Shown: positions 40,082-64,000 of the stretch, piece by piece
How positions within the stretch are numbered: position 1 is the first letter of the stretch
Layout: each line of letters opens with the position of its first letter
Origin: Hyphomicrobiales bacterium
Lineage (GTDB): Bacteria > Pseudomonadota > Alphaproteobacteria > Rhizobiales > Rhizobiaceae
Length of the DNA stretch: 64,000 nucleotides
Direction of reading: 5' to 3'
Assembly: GCA_900470195.1 (NCBI GenBank)
Contig: UEIJ01000024.1
Location: 62,001 to 126,000 of the forward strand
Translations under genes and position numbers: made by a program
Notes under the pieces: generated by a model
What the model was told of the DNA's origin: nothing
Databases searched by the model: none
What the model saw: only the letters and a program-made list of their open reading frames with translations

Positions 40082-40858
40082 ATGAACATTTCCCCACAGT
40101 TCAGTAACAGGACCAGCGAATTGAAGAATAATGGCTACGGAGCAGCGAAAGACGTTTCCTTTAAGCCTGAACCGCCGGGTGACTGCGTGTTGCCGCTGCT
40201 GGTCATCATAGACAACCGTGCGTTGGATCGCGAATGCCTTGCACACGGACTGACGAACCACAGCATCGAAATGTCGATTGCGACATTCAGCTCTTTCGAG
40301 CAGTGGCAGCATCAGCGCCGCGGCCGCACGGCGGGCGCGGTGCTCTTCAACATTGGCGGACAGAAGGTCTCCGACCCGGCTGTCGGGAATTACCTCAATC
40401 GCATTGTCACGGACTGCGCTCCGGCGCCTGTCATTCTTCTGGCCGACAAGGAAGAAATCTCGCAGGTCCTCAAGGCGCTCGATCATGGGGTGAGAGGCTA
40501 CATTCCGACATCGGTCAATGTGAATGTCTGCGTCGAAGCGTTGCGGCTCGCCATGGCGGGAGGGACGTTCGTTCCGGCCAGCAGCGTGCTCGCCCTGCGG
40601 CACGCCACCGATCCGAATTCGCAGCGGCTGCAACCGCTTGGCGGAATGTTCACCCAGCGTCAGGCCGAAGTGGTCAATGCGCTGCGGCGGGGCAAGGCGA
40701 ACAAGATCATCGCTTATGAGCTGAAACTGCGGGAAAGCACCGTGAAGGTTCATATCCGCAACATCATGAAGAAGCTGAAGGCGTCCAATCGCACCGAGGT
40801 GGCTTGCATGATCAACGAGCTGTTTCCTTCGGAAACATCGTTTTCAGACCTGCAATAG
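40082..40858 (+). CDS. LuxR-type regulator with degenerate receiver domain
   Basis: A 258-residue protein. Residues about 38-160 resemble a response-regulator receiver, but the phosphoacceptor position is Asn90 (VLFNIGG) rather than Asp, so it is unlikely to be phosphorylated. A LuxR HTH follows at about 189-246 (KIIAYELKLRESTVKVHIRNIMKKL). It lies 72 bp upstream of the Wzc-like gene and probably controls the exopolysaccharide genes. No kinase is nearby. Confidence 0.83.
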   Translation: MNISPQFSNRTSELKNNGYGAAKDVSFKPEPPGDCVLPLLVIIDNRALDRECLAHGLTNHSIEMSIATFSSFEQWQHQRRGRTAGAVLFNIGGQKVSDPAVGNYLNRIVTDCAPAPVILLADKEEISQVLKALDHGVRGYIPTSVNVNVCVEALRLAMAGGTFVPASSVLALRHATDPNSQRLQPLGGMFTQRQAEVVNALRRGKANKIIAYELKLRESTVKVHIRNIMKKLKASNRTEVACMINELFPSETSFSDLQ

Positions 40859-40930
40859 GCGGGACCTGGCGGCCACTCAGGGGGCCAGGGACATTCAGCG
40901 GATTGAATCATTCCGTGAAGGAGAATTTGG

Positions 40931-43126
40931 GTGATTATCTCCGACGTTTCAGCAGGAAACGGGCGGCAGCCGGTGGTTGACATGCTCGCCATAATAAAAC
41001 GCAGAAAAATGATGCTTGTCGTGCCGGTGATCGCGGGCATTGGCGTCGGTTTTGCGGGCTATCTGACAGCGCCGGTCAGCTATGTGTCGGAGTCCGTGCT
41101 GGTGCTGGATATGCGGCGGCTGCAGGCTCTTCCCAACGAAAGCGCGATCACGCCGCTACCGCAGGACAGCCCCGTCCTTCGTTCCGAACTGGACATCATC
41201 AATTCACGCATGATGGCGCGCAAGGTCATCGACATTCTGCAAGCGGAAAACATCGCCGTGCCGACGGAATTCCGATCGCGCACGGTTTTGTCGTCTGCCT
41301 CGGATGCGGCTTTGCAGGCAAAGGGCGGGCGTGAGGTCGATCCGGCCTTGCGTGAACGCCAGCAGATCGATCTTCTTCTTTCGCGGCTGCGCGTCACCAA
41401 TGACGGCCGGTCCTACACGATCTTCATTTCCTATCGCGCTTCCGACCGGGTCTATGCGGCGCAGGTCGCCAACGCCTTTGCCACCGCCTATCTCGACCAC
41501 CAGATCGATGTACAGCAATCGGCCACGAGGCGTGTCAGCGAGTGGCTTGGCGACAAGCTGGGCAACCTGCGCAGCGATCTTGAAAGTGCCGAACGTGCGG
41601 CGGAGGAATTCCGCCAGAAGTCGCGCCTTGCGGGCGATCAGGGCCAGATCAGTTTCCAGGCCCAGCGCGTGGCGGCTCTCAACAGCGAGATCGTCGCCGC
41701 AACGGGCGCCGTCTCGCTTGCCGAGGCGCGGCTGCGCACGGCGGAAGAATTGAAGGATAAGGATGAAGCACCCGCACTGGCCGAAGTTCTGGCGTCGCCA
41801 GCCATCCAGACCCTGCGCAGCGAGCAGGCGCGCGTCGAGCGCCAGCTTGGTGAGTTGCAGACAAATGGCGCGCTGAAAAGCGCTGAAATCCCTGTGCTGA
41901 AGGCTGAACGGGAAGCACTGAAACAGCAGATTTCCAGCCAGGTCGGCGAAATCATCAAGAGCCTCGGCAACGAAATCCAGATAGCGCGCCAGCGGCGCAG
42001 CGGACTGGAAGAAGCGTTGAAGAAGGCGGAAGCCGATCTTGCCGAAGCCAATCAGGCGCAGGTGAAGGCCGTGCAGCTTGACCGGGAAGCCAATGCCAGC
42101 CGCACGGTCTACGAAAGCTACCTCACGCGTTACAAGCAGCTGATCGAGCAGGACGGCATGGCTGCGCCCGAAGCGCAGATGATTTCGCCCGCAGAACCGG
42201 CGATGGCCAAGGCCAGCCCGAACCTGCCCAACTGGCTGTTGCTGGGGCTGGGGCTTGGCGGGCTCGTCGCGCTTGCAGGCACCATGCTGAAGGAAACATT
42301 CGACAAGATCCGGCCCGCGCAGACGGCATCGCTGGTGCTGCCGGGTATTCCGGCGGCGACGCTGCTGCCAGTTTCGCCGCAGATGACGGTGCCGCTTCTC
42401 GTCAATCGCGGCCTCGATCCGGCAAGCCCGTTCGGTCGCGCCATCAAGTCCGTGCATGATCGCCTGCGGGCACTGACGCGCGGCCGGGATTCGCTGGCGC
42501 TCTCGGTCGTTTCCCTGTCCAGCGGCGAGGGAAAGACACTGCTGATCACCGCGCTTGCGCAGCAGATCGCCGCCACCGGCCTGACGGTCGCGGTCATCGA
42601 TGCGACCAACAGGCGGTCGGGGCTGGCCGAGGCTTTCGGGCTTCCGCACAATGATTTTGGCGGTGTGTTCACCGGACGGCAACTTACCGGCGCGACGCTC
42701 GTGCACGATCATGGCTCCGGCATCGACATCATCAAGCCGAACAGCCAGATGCGCGAGGGAGACTGGCTGGCCGAACTGATCGCCCAGTTGCGGCCCGATC
42801 ACAAGATCATTCTCGTCGACCTTCCGCCAGTCCTGGAAGACAAGCGCTCGGTTCTCCTGTCGCGGGCGACCGACACGGCGCTGCTCGTGGTCCAGCCCGA
42901 CCGTCAGGACCAGCTCGCGACCAATGCGCTGATACAGACGATGGCTTCTTTCGGGCGCAAGCCCGCGCTTGCGGTCGTGAACCAGAACATTGCGTCCTAT
43001 CAAAGCTGGATCACGCTTCCCATCGCGCTGTGCGGGATGGCGCTGCAGAAGGCGGGGCGGGGGCTAGGCGGCATTTTCTCGCGACGGCGAAAGCCGGTCG
43101 CAGGCAGCGTTCAGGAACAGGCGTGA
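40931..43126 (+). CDS. Wzc/ExoP-like polysaccharide co-polymerase with ATPase domain
   Basis: A 731-residue inner-membrane protein. The first helix is at about 28-46, then a long coiled-coil periplasmic region, a second helix at about 436-455 and a cytoplasmic BY-kinase-like domain. Walker A is SSGEGKT (530-536, Lys535) and Walker B is ILVDLPPV. The A-prime motif is only VAVIDATNRR, and the C-terminus (VAGSVQEQA) lacks a tyrosine cluster. It should control chain length together with the next protein. The start is GTG after AAGGAGAA. Confidence 0.88.
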   Translation: MIISDVSAGNGRQPVVDMLAIIKRRKMMLVVPVIAGIGVGFAGYLTAPVSYVSESVLVLDMRRLQALPNESAITPLPQDSPVLRSELDIINSRMMARKVIDILQAENIAVPTEFRSRTVLSSASDAALQAKGGREVDPALRERQQIDLLLSRLRVTNDGRSYTIFISYRASDRVYAAQVANAFATAYLDHQIDVQQSATRRVSEWLGDKLGNLRSDLESAERAAEEFRQKSRLAGDQGQISFQAQRVAALNSEIVAATGAVSLAEARLRTAEELKDKDEAPALAEVLASPAIQTLRSEQARVERQLGELQTNGALKSAEIPVLKAEREALKQQISSQVGEIIKSLGNEIQIARQRRSGLEEALKKAEADLAEANQAQVKAVQLDREANASRTVYESYLTRYKQLIEQDGMAAPEAQMISPAEPAMAKASPNLPNWLLLGLGLGGLVALAGTMLKETFDKIRPAQTASLVLPGIPAATLLPVSPQMTVPLLVNRGLDPASPFGRAIKSVHDRLRALTRGRDSLALSVVSLSSGEGKTLLITALAQQIAATGLTVAVIDATNRRSGLAEAFGLPHNDFGGVFTGRQLTGATLVHDHGSGIDIIKPNSQMREGDWLAELIAQLRPDHKIILVDLPPVLEDKRSVLLSRATDTALLVVQPDRQDQLATNALIQTMASFGRKPALAVVNQNIASYQSWITLPIALCGMALQKAGRGLGGIFSRRRKPVAGSVQEQA

Positions 43127-63162: not shown

Positions 63163-63281
63163 CCGATACGTCCTTTTTCTCCTTTCATAAACGCTTGTCC
63201 TAACCGGACATGCCTTCGGTCAGGTCGTCGCTCCTGTGCTCCGCCGTTAACATGCATTTATCAAGGTTTGAGGAGCTGGAC

Positions 63282-64000
63282 ATGAAGGTACTGGTTACGG
63301 GCAATCAGGGCTATATCGGGTCGGTCATGGTGCCGGTCCTGATCAATGCGGGGCATGACGTGTCCGGCTATGACATTGGCCTTTATGAATATTGTCTTTT
63401 TCAGGAAGGCGGCGCGGTGATGAATGTGCCGACCATCCGCAAGGATGTGCGCGATGTGTCGCCGCGCGATCTCGAGGGGTTCGATGCGGTCATTCATCTT
63501 GCGGCACTTTCCAACGATCCGCTGGGTAATCTCAACGAGGAACTGACTTACGACATCAATCACCGGGCAAGCGTTGCGATGGCAAAAGCTGCGAAGCAGG
63601 CCGGTGTCGGGCGTTTTCTGTTCGCCTCGTCCTGCAGCAATTACGGCATCAGTGACGCCGATCTGATCGATGAGACCGGCGAACTGAAGCCGGTAACGGC
63701 CTATGGCCGGTCAAAGGTGCGGGCGGAACAGGAAATCCGGGAGCTGGCCGATGCAAGCTTCTGCCCGGTCTATTTGCGGCCTGCCACGGCCTATGGCGTT
63801 TCACCGTTCCTGCGTTTCGATATCGTGCTCAACAATCTGGTGGCATGGGCGGTGACGAAGGGGCTGATCTATCTCAAGTCCGACGGCACTCCCTGGCGAC
63901 CTATCGTCCATATCCGCGACATTTCCCGCGCCTTCATGGCGGCCATGGAAGCCCCGCGCGAGAAAGTCTGGAACGAGGCTTTCAATGTCGGCTCGACGAA
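63282..64000 (+). CDS. NAD-dependent sugar epimerase/dehydratase, 5' part
   Basis: The first 239 codons of an extended SDR; it runs past the window end. The cofactor motif is GNQGYIGS (7-14). HLAALSNDPLG, the Ser in SSCSNYG and YGRSK (Tyr-Lys) supply the catalytic set. RPATAYGVSPFLRFDIVLNNL is typical of nucleotide-sugar epimerases. GAGGAGCTGGAC gives a good ribosome site. It probably makes a nucleotide sugar for the glycan; which one is unknown. Confidence 0.87.
   Translation, partial: MKVLVTGNQGYIGSVMVPVLINAGHDVSGYDIGLYEYCLFQEGGAVMNVPTIRKDVRDVSPRDLEGFDAVIHLAALSNDPLGNLNEELTYDINHRASVAMAKAAKQAGVGRFLFASSCSNYGISDADLIDETGELKPVTAYGRSKVRAEQEIRELADASFCPVYLRPATAYGVSPFLRFDIVLNNLVAWAVTKGLIYLKSDGTPWRPIVHIRDISRAFMAAMEAPREKVWNEAFNVGST

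What the first reader, a model, noticed from the sequence alone, without database searches (positions are those of the whole stretch)
40082..64000. Large Wzx/Wzy-type locus for an undescribed fucose-containing glycan
Initiating transferase, flippase, polymerase-like protein, co-polymerase and export protein, five glycosyltransferases, GDP-fucose synthesis, acetylation and pyruvylation genes lie together. It continues with an aminotransferase, a secreted glycosidase-like protein and an epimerase. The gene set matches a surface polysaccharide, yet the repeat unit is not obvious. Brucella relatives have a similar gmd-containing exopolysaccharide region on chromosome II, to my recollection.
Basis: partly seen in the sequence, partly recalled or inferred. 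Interest (0 to 1): 0.7.

Follow-up and report, generated by a model that had tools for sequence, protein, structure and literature searches.

The report
Known Brucella-type surface polysaccharide gene cluster
This is the environmental-relative version of a roughly 29-kb sugar-coat gene cluster already described in Brucella; its sugar is still unidentified, and comparing relatives shows it is built from two movable blocks, one of which probably makes and trims an unusual branched sugar.

Summary
The genes named are intact, but the cluster is larger than reported: it starts with a divergent Crp/Fnr-like regulator at 38934 and runs past the window end to about 69277. There are six glycosyltransferases, not five. 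'Undescribed' is half wrong: in order, strand and length it matches the 25-kb region of Brucella chromosome II that B. abortus lacks (21 of 22 listed loci; omp31 is the odd one). That cluster was published in 2001; I found no solved glycan in the searches I could run. New here: the gene set recurs across Rhizobiaceae, reshuffled and with local losses. The Wzy-like protein and one glycosyltransferase occur in exactly the same 18 of 297 family genomes, even where wzy lies outside the cluster. A sub-block (flippase, one glycosyltransferase, pyruvyltransferase family, GH140-type glycosidase, CDP-sugar/C-methyltransferase genes) also occurs without the fucose block, as in S. fredii NGR234. Best reading: a Wzx/Wzy exopolysaccharide of about seven sugars per repeat, with L-fucose, acetate, probably pyruvate, and a CDP-derived C-methyl-branched sugar that the GH140 enzyme probably cleaves.

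The parts
38934..39692 (-). Crp/Fnr-like regulator, divergent from luxR; part of the conserved locus
   Evidence: ORF (start chosen). Homologs beside the luxR-wzc end in G119, G016, G246, G189, G260, G172, G227, G206, G285, G143, O. quorumnocens. Family name by eye, no profile search was run on it.
40082..40858 (+). LuxR-family regulator with a receiver-like N-terminus that lacks the expected phospho-acceptor Asp
   Evidence: PF00196 E 2e-17; the position I take for the acceptor (by eye, against recalled NarL-type proteins) is Asn, Cys or Ser in 22 of 23 aligned, the exception being the poor G108 hit
40931..43126 (+). Wzc-like polysaccharide co-polymerase (PCP-2a), without a C-terminal tyrosine cluster
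   Evidence: NCBIfam eps_transp_fam/EpsF E 4e-40/5e-42, below cut-off; Wzz and GNVR Pfam hits below cut-off; 0-3 Tyr in the last 45 residues of 21 sequences, three of them short reads
43136..44383 (+). Wza-like outer-membrane export protein (OPX)
   Evidence: PF02563 E 3e-19, above cut-off
44538..45512 (-). fcl, GDP-L-fucose synthase
   Evidence: NCBIfam GDPFucSynFcl E 2e-142, 474 bits against a cut-off of 500
45496..46566 (-). gmd, GDP-mannose 4,6-dehydratase
   Evidence: PF16363 E 3e-151
46827..48098 (+). gt1, WcaI-like GT4 glycosyltransferase
   Evidence: NF007640 WcaI family E 4e-47, below cut-off
48098..49324 (+). gt2, GT4 glycosyltransferase
   Evidence: PF13692 E 7e-20; strong orthologs in exactly the 18 of 297 family genomes that have the strong Wzy
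49321..50517 (+). gt3, GT4 glycosyltransferase; divergent in some lineages
   Evidence: PF00534 E 4e-34; mean distance correlation 0.67
50521..51066 (-). act, WcaF-like hexapeptide acetyltransferase
   Evidence: NF007797 WcaF family E 2e-45, 154.5 bits against a cut-off of 192
51114..52403 (-). Wzy-like polymerase candidate, many transmembrane helices
   Evidence: No credible Pfam or NCBIfam hit; AlphaFold2 mean pLDDT 84.9, nearly all helical; no Foldseek PDB match at E 0.001; co-occurrence with gt2 18 of 18
52400..53020 (-). DUF218 protein, role unknown
   Evidence: PF02698 E 3.5e-21
53017..53904 (-). gt4, GT2-family glycosyltransferase next to the initiating enzyme
   Evidence: PF00535 E 4e-11
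53901..55049 (-). WecA-like initiating phosphoglycosyltransferase
   Evidence: PF00953 E 6e-31; TIGR02380 E 2e-53, below cut-off; NMxDGxDGL motif in the 12 variants printed (18 of 21 sequences)
55326..56810 (+). Wzx flippase (MOP family)
   Evidence: PF13440 E 9e-45
56822..57784 (+). gt5, GT2-family glycosyltransferase; travels with pyr and gh140
   Evidence: PF00535 E 2e-22; with pyr and gh140 in NGR234, G045, G143, G108 and Rhodovastum
57729..58976 (-). pyr, polysaccharide pyruvyltransferase family protein
   Evidence: PF04230 E 2e-36; CsaB model below cut-off
59230..60462 (+). gt6, GT4 glycosyltransferase
   Evidence: PF13692 E 1e-30
60488..61843 (+). amt, class III aminotransferase (GSA-like)
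   Evidence: PF00202 E 1e-37; NF004856, named glutamate-1-semialdehyde 2,1-aminomutase, 842 bits against 486; the HemL model TIGR00713 is below cut-off, 224 against 527
61840..63162 (+). GH140-type glycosidase with an apparent signal peptide (by eye)
   Evidence: PF13204 E 3e-78; PDB 8t9w apiosidase E 2e-36; Foldseek 8t9w E 6e-31, TM 0.80; D185 and E260 invariant in 12 sequences and in 23, window included
63282..64000 (+). SDR sugar-nucleotide dehydrogenase/epimerase, continuing past the window to about 64343 and followed by DUF4910, rfbC, C-methyltransferase, rfbF and pigL (to about 69277)
   Evidence: PF01370 E 1e-39; best PDB match 6vo6 E 1e-33; L007 ORFs

Best explanation
The locus is the Ochrobactrum-type counterpart of the Brucella 25-kb polysaccharide cluster and encodes one Wzx/Wzy-dependent secreted or surface polysaccharide. 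Inferred working: the WecA-like enzyme loads a HexNAc-1-phosphate on undecaprenyl phosphate; six glycosyltransferases extend it to a repeat of about seven sugars that includes L-fucose (Gmd, Fcl). A WcaF-like enzyme adds acetyl groups. A CDP-sugar branch (RfbF, the SDR as a C4 oxidase rather than a 4,6-dehydratase, the RfbC-like epimerase, the 3-C-methyltransferase, with aminotransferase, DUF4910 and PIG-L) supplies a C-methyl-branched, probably amino, hexose. Gt5 probably transfers that sugar and the pyruvyltransferase-family enzyme decorates it or a neighbouring residue. Wzx flips the unit, the Wzy-like protein polymerises it, the Wzc-like protein sets length and the Wza-like protein exports it. 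The secreted GH140-type enzyme hydrolyses the polymer at or near the branched residue, as a trimming or release enzyme. Shown here: gene content, the match to the Brucella cluster in order and strand, co-inheritance, the modular split, and retained catalytic residues. Inferred: every enzymatic step, the sugar identities and the role of GH140.
For: Domains. Match to BRA0418-BRA0439: 21 of 22 loci in the same order and strand, omp31 being the odd one. Co-inheritance: of 297 family genomes, Wzy (strong) 18 and gt2 (strong) 18, the same 18; gh140 23 and cmt (strong) 28, both in 22 (tally). Pairwise protein distances over a 21-genome panel correlate, with per-gene means of 0.83-0.90 for 22 of 25 genes; gt5 0.55, gt3 0.67 and wzy 0.70 are the outliers. 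In G206 and G285 wzy lies away from the cluster but is kept. Module B without module A: NGR234, G045, G143, G108; the last three have no strong Wzy or gt2 anywhere in the genome. GH140 fold and residues. CDP branch: rfbF to PDB 1tzf E 1e-48, C-methyltransferase to 4rv9 mycarose 3-C-methyltransferase E 1.5e-84, RfbC over its NCBIfam cut-off, SDR to 6vo6; no CDP-glucose 4,6-dehydratase above cut-off in the genome.
Against: No chemistry is known for this strain. The Wzy-like protein has no credible family hit and no fold match, so 'polymerase' rests on position, topology, elimination and co-occurrence. RfbF scores below its NCBIfam equivalog cut-off (204.7 against 300), so nucleotide and sugar could differ. 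NCBIfam names amt a glutamate-1-semialdehyde aminomutase. The pyruvyltransferase family has members with other functions. In the Brucella copy, RT-PCR found no transcript of the flippase gene in either species tested. Losses: of the 18 Wzy genomes G169 and G259 lack gh140; G259 also shows no wzx, gt5 or pyr and G092 no pyr in the stretches examined; gmd is not in the examined stretch in 5 of 21 panel members; the G285 gh140 match holds one stop. In Phyllobacterium A18/5-2 gh140 stands alone. The genomes in the tallies are related, so the p-values are descriptive only.
Confidence: 0.8

Rival explanations
1. The locus makes a Wzx/Wzy-dependent O-antigen joined to lipid A-core rather than an exopolysaccharide or capsule.
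For: WecA-type initiation is shared with many Wzy-dependent O-antigens (family knowledge); the authors of PMC1413539 suggested an O-side-chain role for the Brucella copy; the Wzy-like protein, which has no family or fold match, could itself be a ligase.
Against: A PCP-2a and an OPX export protein sit in the locus in all five collinear relatives, which fits capsule or EPS export; no ligase family appeared among the Pfam hits of the locus; Brucella O-antigen is described with the wbk Wzm/Wzt system.
Confidence: 0.12
2. Two independent glycan loci lie next to each other: a fucose polysaccharide (fcl to wecA) and a separate CDP-sugar glycan (wzx to pigL).
For: Module B occurs without module A in NGR234, G045, G143 and G108, and module B genes are reshuffled relative to module A in several relatives.
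Against: In the window's locus the only flippase found is in module B and the only Wzy candidate and initiating enzyme are in module A; 17 of the 18 Wzy genomes have a strong cmt, and the 18th, G172, whose contig ends, has amt, gh140 and pyr; the distances of the two modules correlate.
Confidence: 0.1
3. GH140 here is an ordinary catabolic or scavenging glycosidase that sits in the locus by accident.
For: The one distant GH140 homolog whose surroundings I read (Spirosoma, 30% identity) lies beside SusC/SusD-type genes; PDB relatives are apiosidases (descriptions); gh140 is missing in G169 and G259 and isolated in Phyllobacterium A18/5-2.
Against: In the plasmid collection 17 of the 19 records at 40% identity or more have the aminotransferase within 17 kb (positions), and one more has pyr and gt5 adjacent; gh140 and strong cmt share 22 family genomes.
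Confidence: 0.2

Closest known systems
Brucella 25-kb chromosome II polysaccharide cluster deleted from B. abortus (BRA0418-BRA0439 / BMEII0849-BMEII0827; Vizcaino et al. 2001)
   Same: 21 of 22 listed B. suis loci in the same order and strand, with similar lengths (gmd 1071, gt3 1197, epi 1062, rfbC 525 and cmt 1302 bp in both)
   Different: No omp31 between gt3 and act in the window (3 bp apart). One listed name does not fit: BRA0431, at the place and length of pyr, is called a 3,5-epimerase. No direct sequence comparison with classical Brucella was made; the match rests on the published table.
Sinorhizobium fredii NGR234 pNGR234b cluster near 1.33-1.35 Mb
   Same: Keeps 11 of the 25 genes: wzx, gt5 (two copies), pyr, gh140, amt, epi, duf4910, rfbC, cmt, rfbF, pigL
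   Different: In the 49 kb examined it lacks the fucose, initiating, Wzy, PCP/OPX, acetyltransferase and five other glycosyltransferase genes
Colanic acid type loci (recalled for E. coli)
   Same: Gmd/Fcl fucose synthesis, WcaF-like acetyltransferase, WcaI-like glycosyltransferase, pyruvyltransferase family, PCP-2a plus OPX
   Different: Initiated by a WecA-type (PF00953) enzyme, not the WcaJ type (recalled); has a CDP-sugar/C-methyltransferase branch and a GH140 gene; no wca model over cut-off among the 20 proteins scanned
Campylobacter jejuni CDP- and GDP-sugar capsule pathways
   Same: Glucose-1-phosphate cytidylyltransferase with a 3,5-epimerase acting on a CDP sugar (PMC12369002, passages); C4-dehydrogenase plus epimerase logic (PMC10680097, passages)
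   Different: Here there is a C-methyltransferase, and no CDP-glucose 4,6-dehydratase over cut-off in the genome

Membership tests
Wzx/Wzy-dependent polysaccharide locus | Initiating phosphoglycosyltransferase on undecaprenyl phosphate | tested here: met
   PF00953 E 6e-31; motif kept in the variants printed
Wzx/Wzy-dependent polysaccharide locus | Wzx flippase | tested here: met
   PF13440 E 9e-45
Wzx/Wzy-dependent polysaccharide locus | Wzy polymerase | tested here: inconclusive
   No credible family hit, no fold match; helical membrane-protein-like model and strict co-occurrence with gt2
Wzx/Wzy-dependent polysaccharide locus | Outer-membrane export protein | tested here: met
   PF02563 above cut-off
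Wzx/Wzy-dependent polysaccharide locus | Polysaccharide co-polymerase | tested here: inconclusive
   NCBIfam EpsF/eps_transp_fam with strong E-values but below cut-off; Wzz and GNVR Pfam hits below cut-off
Brucella 25-kb polysaccharide cluster | Gene order and strand from fcl to rfbF | tested here: met
   21 of 22 loci, omp31 excepted
Brucella 25-kb polysaccharide cluster | omp31 inside the cluster | tested here: not met
   gt3 ends at 50517 and act reaches 50521 on the other strand, so there is no room for omp31; I treat this as a difference between orthologous clusters
Brucella 25-kb polysaccharide cluster | Sequence orthology gene by gene to B. melitensis or B. suis | not tested
   No genome identified as one of these species was examined
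GH140 | Fold and family profile | tested here: met
   PF13204 E 3e-78; Foldseek 8t9w E 6e-31 and 5msy E 3e-29
GH140 | Acid/base Asp and nucleophile Glu (identity of the pair recalled for BT1012) | tested here: inconclusive
   D185 and E260 are invariant and D185 aligns with the GGD Asp of 3kzs; but the pair is recalled and the Glu was placed by eye
GH140 | Apiosidase activity | not testable with these tools
   Needs enzymology
Colanic acid locus | WcaJ-type initiating enzyme and the wca gene set | tested here: not met
   The initiating enzyme is PF00953; no wca model over cut-off among 20 proteins scanned

The most novel reading that the evidence does not exclude
Alphaproteobacteria share a movable glycan module (wzx, gt5, pyruvyltransferase family, GH140, and a seven-gene CDP-sugar branch) that plugs into different polysaccharide loci. 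It makes a non-deoxy, 3-C-methyl-branched amino sugar from CDP-glucose by C4 oxidation instead of 4,6-dehydration. GH140, known as an enzyme that removes the branched sugar apiose from plant pectin, has here been recruited as a dedicated trimming enzyme for the bacterium's own branched sugar.
Probability: 0.3. Interest if true: 0.62.

Novelty: new member of a known kind. Interest (0 to 1): 0.45.

Why it matters
The product of the Brucella 25-kb cluster is, as far as my searches show, still unidentified. The cluster is present in B. suis and B. melitensis and absent from B. abortus (PMC1413539). Finding a near-complete or complete cluster in soil and plant bacteria (Shinella, Phyllobacterium, O. 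quorumnocens) means the glycan can be solved outside any listed pathogen. The modular comparison gives concrete predictions: L-fucose, a CDP-derived C-methyl-branched sugar, two Wzy lineages that should give different linkages, and a GH140 enzyme that should cut the polymer. If the GH140 link holds, it would give a biosynthetic-locus role to a family known from plant-cell-wall breakdown.

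Tried and rejected
Considered and set aside: (a) colanic acid relative: the WcaI, WcaF and WcaK models score below cut-off and the initiating enzyme differs. (b) O-antigen of O. quorumnocens with D-fucose: PMC10888714 (passages) predicts dTDP routes (rmlA, rmlB, fcf), so that structure does not explain this GDP-fucose locus. (c) The Brucella exopolysaccharide induced by wbkA over-expression (mannose, galactose, GlcNAc, GalNAc; PMC4478442 passages): the word fucose does not occur in the paper, and it was made in B. abortus, which lacks the cluster. 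(d) A fold match for the Wzy-like protein: none at E 0.001. (e) Paper searches that led nowhere: S. meliloti SMb terms (no papers), GH140 with exopolysaccharide (nothing relevant in the listing), Ochrobactrum EPS composition (20 of 628 listed; only the LPS paper was followed), NGR234 (10 of 17 listed, none opened). PMC9428795 (passages) and PMC4053727 (passages) added nothing on this locus. (f) The tallies with cmt and gt2 contain many weak paralogs: cmt 113 of 297 and gt2 262 of 297 at E 0.001. I used only the strong class above a clear gap (cmt at least 617 bits, next 450; gt2 at least 396 bits, next 115; the gt2 place list was cut by the tool, but it is ordered by E-value). For gh140 I dropped G165, whose two matches are weak pieces (24 to 23 genomes), and for Wzy the weak G094 hit (19 to 18). 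Glycosyltransferase hits may include paralogs.

Full report
What is there. The window is G000:C43:62001-126000 of a 5.15-Mb genome. Between 38934 and about 69277 (window numbering carried on into the contig, locus L007) lie a Crp/Fnr-like regulator and 25 further genes, many overlapping by a few bases. In order: luxR, wzc-like, wza-like, fcl(-), gmd(-), gt1, gt2, gt3, act(-), wzy-like(-), DUF218(-), gt4(-), wecA-like(-), wzx, gt5, pyr(-), gt6, amt, gh140, epi, DUF4910, rfbC(-), cmt, rfbF, pigL. It counted five glycosyltransferases; I count six besides the initiating enzyme.

It is a known cluster in a relative. A table in PMC1413539 (passages read) lists BRA0418-BRA0439 (BMEII0849-BMEII0827) as a 25-kb region on Brucella chromosome II, absent only from B. 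abortus among the three genomes compared. Of these 22 B. suis loci, 21 have a counterpart in the window's contig in the same order and strand, from fcl to rfbF; the odd one is omp31 (BRA0423), which has no place here because gt3 and act lie 3 bp apart. The match is by order, strand, length and informative names; one name does not fit (BRA0431, at the place and length of pyr, is called a 3,5-epimerase), and three are 'hypothetical' in the table. No sequence of these species was compared. The original description is Vizcaino et al. 2001; that paper was not held, so I know it only from its title and from citing papers. In B. melitensis, II 0838 (wzx), II 0851 (ExoF, the likely wza) and II 0831 (DUF4910) appear in VjbR or C12-HSL expression tables (PMC2898763, passages). 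RT-PCR found transcription of four of five glycosyltransferases in B. melitensis and of one in B. suis, but none of the flippase gene in either, so the Brucella copies may be poorly expressed under the conditions used.

How widely it occurs. The Wzy-like protein is found in 27 of 35 genomes of the genus, one of them (G303) with a broken frame, and strongly in 18 of 297 genomes of the family, besides one weak hit that I dropped. The named collection gave 62 loci, in Brucella/Ochrobactrum species, Phyllobacterium, Shinella, Agrobacterium, Neorhizobium, Rhizobium, Mesorhizobium, Bosea, Chelatococcus, Sulfitobacter and others. All 25 genes are collinear in G119, G016, G246 and G189 and in O. quorumnocens A44. 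In G260 all 25 are present in the same order with an extra asparagine-synthetase-like gene (named by eye) between gt2 and gt3, which G206 also has. In G149 all 25 are present with the two halves exchanged. Elsewhere the set is kept in different order with local losses. Reading over the 21-genome panel (the window included): gt1, gt2, gt3, act, wecA, gt6, amt, epi and wzc are found in 21 of 21 (gt3 weakly in some); fcl, wza, wzx, gt5 and DUF4910 in 20; pyr, gh140, rfbC, cmt, rfbF and pigL in 19; gt4 in 17; gmd and DUF218 in 16. Some absences are due to stretch or contig ends (for example cmt in G172 and G227), others look real (gh140, wzx, gt5 and pyr in G259; pyr in G092; gh140 in G169). In the plasmid collection the locus lies on large secondary replicons, but that collection holds nothing else.

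One glycan, inherited as a unit. The 18 genomes with a strong Wzy are exactly the 18 with a strong gt2. In G206 and G285 the Wzy lies far from the cluster (another contig, and roughly 225 kb away) yet is kept, which suggests it works with the cluster from elsewhere. Protein distances over the 21-genome panel correlate between genes, with per-gene means of 0.83-0.90 for 22 of 25 genes; gt5 (0.55), gt3 (0.67) and wzy (0.70) are the outliers. There are two Wzy lineages: G206, G227, G285 and G092 share 54-59% identity with each other but about 40% with the rest, and in all four wzy lies outside the act-DUF218 slot; it is also outside that slot in G103 and G169 of the main lineage. These look like points where the structure varies. 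The correlations contain species relatedness, and I did not correct for it.

Two movable blocks. In S. fredii NGR234 (pNGR234b), G045, G143 and G108, 11 genes (wzx, gt5, pyr, gh140, amt, epi, DUF4910, rfbC, cmt, rfbF, pigL) occur together, and the fucose genes, initiating enzyme, acetyltransferase, Wzy and the other five glycosyltransferases were not found in the 40-49 kb examined. G045, G143 and G108 have no strong Wzy or gt2 anywhere in their genomes; NGR234 was not searched as a whole. In Rhodovastum only gh140, pyr and gt5 stand together within the 37 kb examined. Of the 36 plasmid records with a gh140 match, 19 are at 40% identity or more (18 named as alphaproteobacteria, plus one named Roseateles sp. 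XES5 whose locus is Shinella-like). In 17 of these 19 the aminotransferase lies within 17 kb (positions); Rhodovastum and Phyllobacterium A18/5-2 are the exceptions, and in the latter gh140 stands alone. The other 17 records are below 32%; I looked at the surroundings of one, a Spirosoma locus of catabolic look. In the family sample gh140 (23) and strong cmt (28) share 22 genomes; G172 lacks cmt because its contig ends, and six genomes have strong cmt without gh140.

Chemistry, inferred. The RfbF homolog resembles glucose-1-phosphate cytidylyltransferase 1tzf (E 1e-48) but scores below the NCBIfam cut-off, while the RfbC homolog is over its cut-off. The C-methyltransferase resembles mycarose 3-C-methyltransferase 4rv9 (E 1.5e-84). 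The SDR's best PDB relative is 6vo6, which I recall, without a call that shows it, as Cj1427; Cj1427 is described as a C4-dehydrogenase in PMC10680097 (passages). The SDR carries SSCSNYG in the 12 variants printed (18 of 25 sequences) where 4,6-dehydratases carry an Asp-Glu pair (recalled), and no CDP-glucose 4,6-dehydratase scores over cut-off in the genome. A 3,5-epimerase acting on a CDP sugar is known from C. jejuni HS:41 (PMC12369002, passages). DUF4910 proteins have been proposed to act in modified-sugar synthesis (PMC4000134, passages). NCBIfam names the aminotransferase a glutamate-1-semialdehyde aminomutase, but the HemL model itself is below cut-off; a role in the sugar branch is inferred from its company. 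Together these point to a CDP-linked, C-methyl-branched hexose, probably aminated. The GH140 protein has the family fold (Foldseek 8t9w, TM 0.80, on a model of mean pLDDT 79) and keeps D185 and E260, so it is probably active. Its travel with this branch makes it a candidate for cutting the residue that the branch supplies.

Weak points. The polymerase assignment has no family or fold support. Pyruvylation is assumed from a family name. GH140 is missing in G169 and G259, and its match in G285 holds a stop. No glycan of any carrier has been linked to the locus in anything I read. The statement that no structure is in print rests on searches of an open-access library only.

Regulation, in passing. 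The LuxR-type regulator has a receiver-like domain whose presumed phospho-acceptor is Asn, Cys or Ser in 22 of 23 aligned sequences (the exception, G108, is a poor hit), so it probably does not work by phosphorylation. The Wzc-like proteins show no C-terminal tyrosine cluster (0-3 Tyr in the last 45 residues of 21 sequences, three of them short reads).

Verdict. A real and conserved exopolysaccharide or capsule locus, already described in Brucella as a cluster of unknown product. The added value is its reach across Rhizobiaceae, the two-block architecture, the displaced Wzy, and the testable link between a GH140 enzyme and a CDP-derived branched sugar.

Noticed in passing
window 40082-40858: LuxR-type regulator with a receiver-like domain lacking the presumed phospho-acceptor Asp (Asn, Cys or Ser in 22 of 23 aligned); it may be phosphorylation-independent.
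   Followed up: partly
window 40931-43126: Wzc-like co-polymerase without a C-terminal tyrosine cluster in the 21 sequences read, three of them short, so probably not a classical BY-kinase.
   Followed up: partly
It suggests amidation of the repeat in that lineage.
   Followed up: no
G206 (L025, L058) and G285 (L027, L062): Wzy displaced far from its cluster but retained; these two belong to a second Wzy lineage of about 40% identity.
   Followed up: partly
L133 27247-30507 and L134 28363-32952: Large signalling proteins (annotated response regulator; CheR family) beside the luxR genes in the Shinella and A. pusense loci.
   Followed up: no
L131 about 20.4-22.2 and 35.7-37.4 kb: The NGR234 block contains and is followed by two copies of the same 589-residue reading frame in opposite orientation, perhaps insertion elements; it also holds an acyltransferase-like and a second secreted glycosidase-like ORF (both named by eye).
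   Followed up: no
G294 C2:441464-441766: A genus member without the Wzy has a C-methyltransferase fragment (87% identity over residues 193-293), possibly a remnant of a deleted cluster.
   Followed up: no
PMC1413539 table, BMEII0828 and BMEII0829: The counterpart of the C-methyltransferase gene is one locus in B. suis (BRA0438) but listed as two loci in B. melitensis.
   Followed up: no
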